Shown: positions 51,953-56,480 of the stretch, piece after piece
How positions within the stretch are numbered: the stretch's first letter is position 1
How the letters are laid out: each line of letters begins with the position of its first letter
Assembly (NCBI GenBank): GCA_016187925.1
Contig: JACPIS010000037.1
Span: forward strand, 1 to 64,000
Reading direction: 5' to 3'
Length of the DNA stretch: 64,000 nt
Origin: Opitutia bacterium
GTDB taxonomy: Bacteria; Verrucomicrobiota; Verrucomicrobiia; Opitutales; Opitutaceae
Position numbers and translations under genes: made by a program
The notes under the pieces: generated by a model
Databases searched by the model: none
Seen by the model: the letters and a program-made list of their open reading frames with translations, nothing else
What the model was told of the DNA's origin: nothing

Positions 51953-52018
51953 GGCGAACGTCACAGATGAGCCATGGCAGGGCGCCGCCCTGCCATTGGC
52001 TCTGGCGATTTGTTAGCC
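51953..52018 (-). other. attC site b1
   Basis: R'' GGCTAAC (52012-52018), spacer AAATCGC, L'' CAGAGCCA, a perfect TGGCAGGGC/GCCCTGCCA-type stem, L' TGGCTCATCTGTG and R' GTTCGCC (51953-51959). The 66-bp length and order R''-L''-L'-R' are those of a compact attC. The TAA stop of the upstream cassette gene lies inside R''. Confidence 0.88.
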
Positions 52019-53343: not shown

Positions 53344-53351
53344 CTTCTTCC

Positions 53352-53418
53352 GCCGATCGTCATCAGTCAGACACGGAGGGGCGAAGCCCCGGAGTTGTCT
53401 GTGATGATCTGGTTAGCC
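53352..53418 (-). other. attC site b3
   Basis: R'' GGCTAAC (53412-53418) directly follows the upstream stop; a stem GGGGC-TTC-GCCCC with flanking AGACAAC / GTGTCT arms follows, then R' GATCGGC (53352-53358), two bases from GTTRRRY. The 67-bp site closely matches b5 in layout (ATCACAGACAAC ... GTGTCTGACTG). Confidence 0.82.
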
Positions 53419-53419
53419 C

Positions 53420-53869: not shown

Positions 53870-53877
53870 CTCTCTTC

Positions 53878-53968
53878 GGCTAACGTTACAGATGAGCCAC
53901 GACCCTGCTTGGCACCAAAGGCTGCTCCGCAGCCGACGTGCCAAGCAGGGTCGTTGGCTCTAGCGACT
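53878..53968 (-). other. attC site b4, 3' part (split by the IS element)
   Basis: R' GTTAGCC (53878-53884), L' GTGGCTCATCTGTAAC, a long stem (ACGACCCTGCTTGGCAC against its inverse) and L'' TAGAGCCA are present. The R'' that should lie 7 nt beyond is instead at 55333-55339 (GCCCAAC, perfect RYYYAAC), on the far side of the inserted element. Confidence 0.88.
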
Positions 53969-53983
53969 TCCATGAGAAGGCGT

Positions 53984-54228
53984 GTCGAGGGTAATGTTTA
54001 AAATGGTTCACCATTTTGCTGGTCGGTGCCGTTGGCCCTCGGCGGTTCCGGATGGTCAGGCTTCCATACGCACTCGGTGGGTGGGCGTCAATGCCCGGGC
54101 GGTGCAGGGAGGAGTCCGTGAAACCGGAGAGGGGCTGGCCCTGCCTACTGGTTATCGCATTGATTGCTCATGCTGGCGCCAGATCGCAGTAGCCAAAGGA
54201 CGGAACCTGGGTGGGAAATATTCGGGAA
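53984..54228 (-). ncRNA. Candidate bridge RNA region of the IS element
   Basis: The 245 nt downstream of the transposase stop are non-coding and end near a perfect AAAATGGT-TC-ACCATTTT hairpin (54000-54017). In IS1111-type elements the bridge RNA is encoded downstream of the recombinase. The minus-strand 10-mer AACCAGTAGG (54144-54153) is identical to the junction of attC R'' with the transposase-proximal IS end (55326-55335), as a guide segment would be. The RNA ends and fold are not defined. Confidence 0.45.
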
Positions 54229-55287
54229 TCAGGCGGCTTGGAGGAGGGGTTGATACTCGGCCCCGCTTTTCCAGAGGGCGAGGAGCGTGACGGCGAGCTT
54301 GCGGGCGACGGCGATGACGGCGCGTTTCTTGGCGGACTTGCCGCCGCGCAAGGCGATGCGCTCGCCGGCCTCACGCAAGTGCGAGGGCGGGCCGAAGGGC
54401 CCGAGGATGTAGTGGGCACAGTTGACCAGCAGGCAGCGCAACTGGCCGTTGCCGGCCTTGGTGATGGGCAGCTGCTTGTCGGTGAGACCCGATTGATCCC
54501 TTCGGGGCACGAGTCCGAGGTAGGCGCCCACGTCGCGGGTGTGCGGGAAGCGCGCCGGCGTCTCGACGGTGAGCACGAAGCACAGGGCGGTCAGCGGGCC
54601 GACGCCGTCGACCTGGCGCAGACGGGCGGTGACGGGATATTGCTCATCAGCCATCTGTTCGAGCCGGACGTCGAGTTGTTTGATCTGGGCGTTGAGCGCA
54701 TCGATGGTCTGCAGCAGCGGCTCGACCAGCGCGGCCGTCGCGGCGTCGGCGCGGGCCCGGAACTGGCGCACGAAGGCGGTGGCCTTGACGCCACGGGGCA
54801 CGACCAGCCCGAGGCTCTTCACGAGAAAACGGACACTGTTCATCTGGTTGACGCGGGAGCGCACGAGGGCCTCGCGGACCTTCAGCTGCACCAAGGCGCG
54901 CTGGGCAGACTCGCTGCGGTGCTGCACCGGGCTGAGCAAGGCGGGATCGGCCCGGCCGAGCCGGGCAAGCATCCGCGCGTCCTCCTCGTCGCTCTTGGTC
55001 GTGCTCTGCGAGATCGCCCGCAGCTTGCGGGCGTTGGCCACGATCACCGCGTGGCCCAGGGCCTGGAGCAGGCGGCTCACCCACGGGCTGTGCGTGCCGG
55101 TCTCCATCACGAAGGTGGCCCCGGGATGCTTCTGCGCGAAGGCCGTCAGGCACTCGCGCGTGTTGGTGATCGCTTCCTCGGCGAGAATCTCGCCGGCGGT
55201 AGAGAGGACGCAGGCGCTGTGCTTGCGGTCCCCGAGGTCGATTCCGATCGTGACGTTGTTCGTGGTCATAAGGCGGAGAGTATCCAC
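54229..55287 (-). CDS. IS110 family transposase (DEDD recombinase)
   Basis: A 352-residue IS110-type transposase. The N-terminal RuvC-like domain has TIGIDLGD (Asp), FVMETGTHS (Glu) and KSDEEDARMLARL (Asp pair); a coiled-coil linker follows; the C-terminal Transposase_20 part has VDGVGPLTALCFVLTV, LGLVPRRDQSG and LPITKAGNGQLR. The GTG at 55287 has GGAAG six bases upstream; an ATG at 55269 is the alternative. The gene is complete, with 44 nt of element sequence before it and about 260 nt after it. Confidence 0.93.
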   Translation of the reverse strand: MDTLRLMTTNNVTIGIDLGDRKHSACVLSTAGEILAEEAITNTRECLTAFAQKHPGATFVMETGTHSPWVSRLLQALGHAVIVANARKLRAISQSTTKSDEEDARMLARLGRADPALLSPVQHRSESAQRALVQLKVREALVRSRVNQMNSVRFLVKSLGLVVPRGVKATAFVRQFRARADAATAALVEPLLQTIDALNAQIKQLDVRLEQMADEQYPVTARLRQVDGVGPLTALCFVLTVETPARFPHTRDVGAYLGLVPRRDQSGLTDKQLPITKAGNGQLRCLLVNCAHYILGPFGPPSHLREAGERIALRGGKSAKKRAVIAVARKLAVTLLALWKSGAEYQPLLQAA

Positions 55288-55332
55288 CTCACACTTCCGT
55301 GCGAGGCGCTCTACGCCTTCTCATTCCTACTG

Positions 55333-55346
55333 GTTGGGCGTTTTCT
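55333..55346 (-). other. attC site b4, R'' part
   Basis: GCCCAAC (minus strand, 55333-55339) lies 7 nt after the stop of the upstream cassette gene and directly before the IS boundary. It is the missing R'' of the site at 53878-53968. Confidence 0.85.
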
Positions 55347-55787: not shown

Positions 55788-55854
55788 GCCCATCGTCAGC
55801 AGTCAGACACGACGGGGCGCAGCCCCGTCGTTGTCTGTGATGCTCTGGATGGGC
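55788..55854 (-). other. attC site b5
   Basis: R'' GCCCATC (55848-55854) and R' GATGGGC (55788-55794) are perfect inverses. Between them an ACGACGGGGC / GCCCCGTCGT stem with a TGC-type loop and the same ATCACAGACAAC / GTGTCTGACTG arms as b3. The R' deviates from GTTRRRY in having GAT for GTT. Confidence 0.82.
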
Positions 55855-56348: not shown

Positions 56349-56480
56349 GCCCATCAGTGTTATTGTGCCGCACTCGAAAGCCGCACCGGGAAAGGGTTCA
56401 TGGCGGCATTTCACCCCGCAACTCCCTCGGATTCAAGACCGCAGATTTTGGGTGCGGCTTTACGCGGGTGCAGGTGGTGC
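56349..56480 (-). other. attC-like site b6, head of cassette array 2
   Basis: R' GATGGGC (56349-56355) as in b5, with an 11-bp inverted pair AAAGCCGCACC / GGTGCGGCTTT (56377-56387 and 56451-56461) around about 63 bp. The R'' is not clear (perhaps GCACCAC near 56474). No attI or integrase gene lies beyond it. Confidence 0.6.

What the first reader, a model, noticed from the sequence alone, without database searches (positions are those of the whole stretch)
53969..55339. IS1111-type element sits exactly in the R''-L'' spacer of an attC
Removing 53969-55331 rejoins GCCCAAC, a 7-nt spacer and TAGAGCCA, restoring an attC with the same spacer length as the intact b1. The 12-bp inverted repeats are subterminal with 3 and 7 outer bases, and CT borders both ends. 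This matches the described IS1111-attC group and gives independent support that the palindromes are attC sites.
Basis: partly seen in the sequence, partly recalled or inferred. Interest (0 to 1): 0.85.

Follow-up and report, generated by a model that had tools for sequence, protein, structure and literature searches.

The report
RNA-guided insertion sequence inside integron attC
A small jumping gene that appears to use its own guide RNA has landed exactly inside an integron's recombination site (attC) in a Verrucomicrobiota (Opitutaceae) genome; it belongs to a lineage that seems to have evolved attC targeting separately from the attC-hunting elements known from antibiotic-resistance integrons.

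Summary
Window 53969-55331 is a 1363-bp IS1111-type element: 12-bp subterminal repeats, 7- and 3-bp extensions, DEDD/SG transposase, downstream non-coding region. It sits between R'' and L'' of an attC. Joining the flanks gives a site found uninterrupted in other Opitutaceae genomes, some with the identical CAGTCGC spacer. Four related insertions lie 1-6 kb from an integron integrase. A second copy, split over two contig ends, interrupts a DUF11-like gene and also gives exact boundaries. The filing under the known IS1111-attC group does not hold. The transposase is only 25-31% identical to ISPa21/ISKpn4/ISPpu24/ISPa62 and falls elsewhere in the tree. The element lies parallel to the cassettes (theirs are antiparallel), 1 nt after R'' (theirs about 6 nt). 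The non-coding region encodes a predicted bridge RNA (seekRNA): stems show compensatory changes, target guides co-vary with insertion sites (0 of 100,000 permutations as good), donor guides co-vary with the IS ends. One guide reads R'' (TAACCAG), the other L'' (TCTGGCGCC); ISKpn4 uses its guides the other way round, which explains its opposite orientation. This is a Verrucomicrobiota clade of attC-seeking, RNA-guided ISs, probably convergent with the proteobacterial one. RNA production and transposition are inferred.

The parts
53969..55331 (-). IS1111-type insertion sequence, 1363 bp
   Evidence: sTIRs, exact ends shared with the second copy; flanks rejoin to attC or to an ORF
54229..55287 (-). 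transposase (RuvC-like DEDD + Transposase_20; GIDLG, METG, DEEDAR and GLVPRRDQSG motifs), 352 aa
   Evidence: Pfam PF01548 and PF02371; NCBIfam NF033542 'IS110 family RNA-guided transposase', 214.7 bits against a cut-off of 140
55313..55324 (-). left subterminal inverted repeat ATGAGAAGGCGT; 7-bp extension 55325-55331 (AGTAGGA)
53972..53983 (-). right subterminal inverted repeat ACGCCTTCTCAT; 3-bp extension 53969-53971 (GGA)
54055..54203 (-). predicted bridge RNA (seekRNA), target loop plus donor loop
   Evidence: alignment of 21 relatives, compensatory stems
54175..54184 (-). target guide 1 (ATCTGGCGCC): complementary to the top strand of the right target half (attC L'' side, AGNCGNYAGAG)
54148..54154 (-). 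target guide 2 (TAACCAG): same sequence as the left target half (R'' AAC + C + core AG), pairs with the bottom strand
54108..54117 (-). predicted donor guide for the left IS end (GGACTCCTCC; compare rc of the left end, CATTCCTACT)
   Evidence: co-variation with left ends, 0 of 50,000 permutations as good
54061..54067 (-). predicted donor guide for the right IS end (ATGGAAG = right end TGGA plus core AG)
   Evidence: p=0.011 (TGGAAG/TAAGAG change in step with the right end)
55332..55339 (-). R'' side of the interrupted attC: GCCCAAC plus one base (C)
53876..53968 (-). rest of the interrupted attC: spacer AGTCGC, L'' TAGAGCCA, palindrome, L' TGGCTCA, R' GTTAGCC
51953..52018 (-). intact attC of the same family, 7-nt R''-L'' spacer
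53345..53419 (-). attC-like site GGGCTAACCAGATCATCACAGACAAC...GATCGGC
55788..55854 (-). attC-like site GCCCATCCAGAGCATCACAGACAAC...GATGGGC

Best explanation
The feature is an IS1111-type (IS110 superfamily) insertion sequence that entered an attC recombination site of an integron-type cassette array. Shown in sequence: exact ends, no target duplication, the restored attC, a conserved RNA-like structure, and guides that match both halves of the target and both IS ends. Inferred from the characterised IS1111/IS110 systems (PMC11187229, PMC11208160): the region downstream of the transposase gene is transcribed into a bridge RNA (seekRNA); the transposase uses it to bring a circular IS (ends joined at core AG) to a matching target, where strands are exchanged at the AG core. 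Guide 2 reads R'' (TAACCAG) and guide 1 reads the L'' side (TCTGGCGCC); together they fit the consensus attC of Opitutaceae, so attC targeting is by sequence guides, not by recognition of the folded attC. The element belongs to a Verrucomicrobiota clade of attC-seeking ISs whose guides follow the attC sequence of their host lineage, separate from the known proteobacterial IS1111-attC group. The insertion separates R'' from L'' by 1.36 kb and very probably inactivates that attC (inferred).
For: Ends and family. Second copy with the same ends, ORF restored (..DLGTLTP|GQSAVITFGVQIDQ*); homologue uninterrupted. Empty attC found in relatives with identical spacer. Related elements in attC, always with R'' at the left end. 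IntI near the IS in G104 (two arrays), G050 and G144. Guides against targets across 14 element types: guide 1 102 matches against 59.1 +/- 5.2 (maximum 87 of 100,000 permutations), guide 2 62 against 26.9 +/- 4.5 (maximum 49). Donor guide against left end, 0 of 50,000. Stems: 97.6% of cells paired, 36 compensatory cells against 9.6 shuffled and 1-5 when slid. Guides fit the attC consensus of 20 sites. In G544 a different guide matches a different attC family; 20 clustered attC-like sites, five IS copies inserted in such sites. Separate clade from ISPa21/ISKpn4.
Against: No RNA, circle or transposition data. Guide matches in the window copy are imperfect (7 of 10 and 4 of 6). Off-target copies exist (DUF11 gene; L033), so attC is preferred, not exclusive. 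The host genome lacks an IntI above the curated cut-off, so integron activity is not shown there. The attC status of some relatives (L049, L050, L027) rests on partial flanks. No Rfam family matched the RNA region, so the RNA could not be confirmed that way.
Confidence: 0.93

Rival explanations
1. It is simply another member of the described IS1111-attC group (ISPa21/ISKpn4/ISPst6/ISPa25), spread horizontally from Proteobacteria.
For: Same IS family, same R''-L'' spacer of attC, downstream non-coding region with guides.
Against: 25-31% identity to four named group members; their group is one 100/99 branch together with IS4321, away from the window clade; non-attC elements lie nearer to the window than the group does. 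sTIR ATGAGAAGGCGT against ATGGACTCTCCCC, opposite orientation, different insertion point and swapped guides.
Confidence: 0.05
2. attC targeting is ancestral to a large part of the IS1111 family and was lost in the elements between the two clades.
For: Both groups read the conserved AAC of R''; the tree cannot tell gain from loss.
Against: The AAC is read by guide 2 here and by guide 1 in ISKpn4, with opposite orientation, so the guides are not simply inherited; many non-attC lineages lie between.
Confidence: 0.12
3. The element recognises the folded (single-stranded) attC hairpin rather than its sequence.
For: Most full copies in Opitutaceae are in palindromic attC sites.
Against: The second copy in a DUF11-like coding sequence shares the guide-matched letters (CTCTGACGCC) but is not an attC; relatives with other guides use other, matching sites.
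Confidence: 0.05
4. The match to attC is coincidence: a palindromic repeat (REP-like) of unrelated function was hit.
For: IS1111 elements such as ISPa11 target REP sequences (PMC11187229); no IntI in the host genome.
Against: The same sites form arrays next to IntI in relatives, with R''/L''/L'/R' anatomy and cassette spacing.
Confidence: 0.02

Closest known systems
IS1111-attC group (ISPa21, ISKpn4, ISPpu24, ISPa62 tested; ISPst6, ISPa25 from PMC11187229)
   Same: IS1111 family; inserted in the R''-L'' spacer of attC; non-coding region downstream of tnp with two guides matching both target halves; subterminal inverted repeats
   Different: Transposase 25-31% identical and on another branch; sTIR sequence differs; lies antiparallel to the cassette whereas this one is parallel; inserts about 6 nt after R'' against 1 nt here; guide 1 reads R'' there, guide 2 reads it here
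IS1111-family seekRNA elements in general (ISEc11, ISPa11; PMC11187229)
   Same: sTIR with 7/3-bp extensions, DEDD/SG transposase, downstream RNA, top-strand guide 5' of bottom-strand guide
   Different: Target is attC; donor-end guides are also visible here by co-variation
IS110/IS621 bridge RNA system (PMC11208160)
   Same: RNA with a target loop and a donor loop, both readable; core dinucleotide
   Different: RNA encoded in the right end, downstream of tnp; long sTIR
Desulfobacula/Desulfotignum/Desulfobacterales IS1111 elements L019, L020, L022
   Same: 52-53% identical transposase, same sTIR core ATGAGAAGGC, same RNA scaffold (L020, L022)
   Different: Guides and insertion sites are different and not attC

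Membership tests
IS1111 family (IS110 superfamily) | subterminal inverted repeats of 11-13 bp with 7-bp left and 3-bp right extensions | tested here: met
   12 bp perfect, 7 and 3 bp; extensions as defined in PMC11187229
IS1111 family (IS110 superfamily) | DEDD transposase with PF01548 + PF02371 and GL-P----S(t)G motif | tested here: met
   (GLVPRRDQSG at residue 258)
IS1111 family (IS110 superfamily) | long non-coding region downstream of tnp encoding seekRNA/bridge RNA | tested here: met
   260 nt downstream; conserved structure and guides; expression not tested
IS1111 family (IS110 superfamily) | no target duplication; restored target on removal | tested here: met
IS1111 family (IS110 superfamily) | circular intermediate | not testable with these tools
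   needs PCR or reads across the joined ends
IS1111-attC group (ISPa21/ISKpn4 lineage) | insertion into attC R''-L'' spacer | tested here: met
IS1111-attC group (ISPa21/ISKpn4 lineage) | transposase in the same clade | tested here: not met
   separate branch, known group 100/99
IS1111-attC group (ISPa21/ISKpn4 lineage) | same orientation and position relative to attC | tested here: not met
   antiparallel, AACAATTCA|TTCAAGCC; here parallel, AACC|AG
integron cassette array (attC identity of the target) | R''/L''/L'/R' sites repeated at cassette spacing next to an IntI | tested here: met
   in relatives; own genome has attC sites but no IntI above the cut-off, i.e. CALIN-like
integron cassette array (attC identity of the target) | IntI-catalysed recombination at the site | not testable with these tools
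   needs an assay

The most novel reading that the evidence does not exclude
RNA-guided attC hunting evolved at least twice: the Verrucomicrobiota clade gained it independently of the ISPa21/ISKpn4 group, reads the site from the opposite side, and its guides follow the attC sequence of each host lineage (Opitutaceae AACCAGNCGCYAGAG; G544 CAACAAGRCCGCGG), so that integrons serve as a renewable, low-cost landing pad that the IS tracks by changing about 10 guide bases.
Probability: 0.7. Interest if true: 0.7.

Novelty: new variant of a known kind. Interest (0 to 1): 0.62.

Why it matters
attC sites are the currency of integrons. A second, separate lineage of RNA-guided ISs that reads the same conserved boxes in the opposite orientation shows that the guide, not a lineage-specific protein, makes attC a target, and gives a natural set of guide/target pairs for testing the bridge RNA code in the IS1111 branch, donor loop included. 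It extends a phenomenon known from proteobacterial resistance integrons to the chromosomal integrons of Verrucomicrobiota.

Tried and rejected
Rfam scan of the element: no RNA family (two weak microRNA-model hits are the attC palindrome). Tetu and Holmes 2008 not held, so the defining features of the IS1111-attC group were measured on plasmid copies instead. ISPst6 reference record not held; ISPst6 and ISPa25 are therefore absent from the tree. Literature searches found no held paper describing attC-targeting ISs in Verrucomicrobiota; absence from this library is not proof. Considered and rejected: membership in the known group, recognition of the attC fold, REP-like coincidence (see rivals). 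The automatic guide finder mis-anchored L018 and L020; these were anchored by hand. L050 and the G544 elements scored poorly in the fixed register of that test (G544 pairs well when shifted); they were kept in the test as they were.

Full report
1. Observation. The window holds a 1363-bp element at 53969-55331 (read on the minus strand). Its 12-bp subterminal repeats are perfect (53972-53983, 55313-55324), with a 7-bp extension at the left end (AGTAGGA) and 3 bp at the right end (GGA), the values given for the IS1111 family (PMC11187229). The single long gene (54229-55287) is a DEDD transposase: Pfam DEDD_Tnp_IS110 and Transposase_20, NCBIfam NF033542 'IS110 family RNA-guided transposase' 214.7 bits against a cut-off of 140, with the GL-P----SG motif. 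Joining the flanks gives GCCCAAC-CAGTCGC-TAGAGCCA followed by palindrome, L' and R' GTTAGCC. The intact window attC at 51953-52018 has the same 7-nt spacer length.

2. Exact ends. The host genome (G000) holds a second, identical copy broken by the ends of two contigs: C37 ends inside one IS end and C29 inside the other. Its flanks, joined, give one open frame..SFAFDLGTLTP|GQSAVITFGVQIDQ*, a DUF11-like C-terminus; a homologue in G103 runs across the junction without interruption. So the ends are exact, no bases are duplicated, and this copy is an off-target in a coding sequence whose letters (CTCTGACGCC) resemble the attC L'' side (CTCTAGCGAC). 'DUF11-like' is named from the sequence pattern, not from a domain search. 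Remnants of related copies lie at C46, C41 and C12; those at C41 and C12 have attC-like flanks. That C37 and C29 are the two sides of one insertion is inferred from the restored frame.

3. Empty site. The 194-nt joined-flank query matches 67 of 252 Opitutaceae genomes (own genome included), many of them across the junction without interruption and in clusters with cassette spacing. Several have the identical spacer CAGTCGC (L088, L091, L095, L103).

4. The sites are attC. IntI above the curated cut-off is present in 87 of 250 Opitutaceae genomes and in none of 14 controls. In G104 (two arrays), G050 and G144 IntI lies 1-6 kb from a relative of this IS, and in all four the transposase gene points away from IntI, i.e. 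with the cassettes. The host itself has no IntI above cut-off: its array is CALIN-like, or IntI is missing from the 48-contig assembly.

5. Relatives. Protein searches gave full or partial elements across Opitutaceae, other Verrucomicrobiota and some Desulfobacterota. The sTIR core ATGAGAAGGC is shared by nearly all of them; L062/L063 differ. Those in attC (window, L029, L030, L032, L038, a tandem right end in L031, L018, L052, five copies in G544) have R'' at the left end. In G544 the attC-like family is different (TTCAACAAGRCCGCGGT...CCTTGTTNGGC); 20 such sites lie in clusters, with 0 in the reversed-pattern control.

6. Guide RNA. The region downstream of tnp aligns across 21 elements as a conserved scaffold. 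In the 16 sequences counted, its outer stem and inner hairpin are paired in 97.6% of cells, with 36 compensatory cells against 9.6 after shuffling and 1-5 when slid. Between the stems lie two guides: guide 1 is complementary to the top strand of the right target half, guide 2 equals the left half. The order (top-strand match 5' of bottom-strand match) is that reported for IS1111 seekRNAs. Across 14 element types own guide and own target agree far better than permuted ones: guide 1 102 against 59.1 +/- 5.2 (maximum 87 of 100,000), guide 2 62 against 26.9 +/- 4.5 (maximum 49). Some of these types are related, so the permutation is a strong indication, not an exact probability. A second structure carries sequences that co-vary with the IS ends (left end: 0 of 50,000 permutations; right end: p=0.011, resting on TGGAAG/TAAGAG), as expected of a donor loop (PMC11208160). 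For the window, guide 2 (TAACCAG) and guide 1 (rc GGCGCCAGAT) together fit the consensus of 20 Opitutaceae attC sites, GCCNAAC(C/A)AG(T/G)CGC(T/C)AGAGCC, to within one base of guide 1.

7. Comparison with the known IS1111-attC group. Copies annotated or published as ISPa21, ISKpn4, ISPpu24 and ISPa62 were fetched from plasmids. They too sit in the R''-L'' spacer, but antiparallel to the cassette, at AACAATTCA|TTCAAGCC, with sTIR ATGGACTCTCCCC. Their transposases are 25-31% identical to the window's and form a 100/99 branch with IS4321 beside it; the Verrucomicrobiota attC elements form another branch (89/85) among elements with other targets. In ISKpn4 the R'' letters (TAACAAT) lie in guide 1 and the L'' letters (TTGAA) in guide 2; here it is the reverse. 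That swap explains the opposite orientation and argues for independent origin. The tree has no outgroup, ISPst6 and ISPa25 are missing, and the support of the Verrucomicrobiota attC branch is below 95, so convergence is likely, not proven.

8. Verdict. Observation confirmed; interpretation partly supported. The element is an IS1111 family member that works like the IS1111-attC elements, but two defining features of that group (clade; orientation and position) were tested and not met. Steps that are inferred: RNA production, RNA-guided transposition by this protein, and inactivation of the attC.

Noticed in passing
G000 contigs C37 end (L003) and C29 end (L004): Second identical copy of the IS inserted in a DUF11-like gene, an off-target whose letters resemble the attC target; the core reads GG at one side and AG at the other.
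   Followed up: yes
L031 (G104), right end: Two right ends of the element in tandem, about 170 bp apart, the outer one bordering the attC: trace of an earlier insertion at the same site.
   Followed up: partly
G544 C1: 974-979 kb, 1282-1284 kb, 3258-3281 kb, 3445-3455 kb: Clusters of very short attC-like sites (TTCAACAAGRCCGCGG...CCTTGTTNGGC) with IS copies inserted in some; possibly an unusual short attC family.
   Followed up: partly
L077 (NZ_OL468819.1, pS810a): An ISPa21-annotated copy lies next to a dndB gene, not in an attC: off-target of the known group.
   Followed up: no
window 56370-56455: A further inverted repeat (AAAGCCGCACC...GGTGCGGCTTT) just outside the last recognised attC, perhaps a terminator or another attC.
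   Followed up: no
L056 (G262): Relative whose transposase reading frame holds one TAG stop and whose downstream RNA region could not be anchored: probably a decayed copy.
   Followed up: no
window 53345-53419 and 55788-55854: Two attC-like sites with R' GATCGGC and GATGGGC instead of GTTRRRY; the GAT form recurs in other Opitutaceae attC sites.
   Followed up: no
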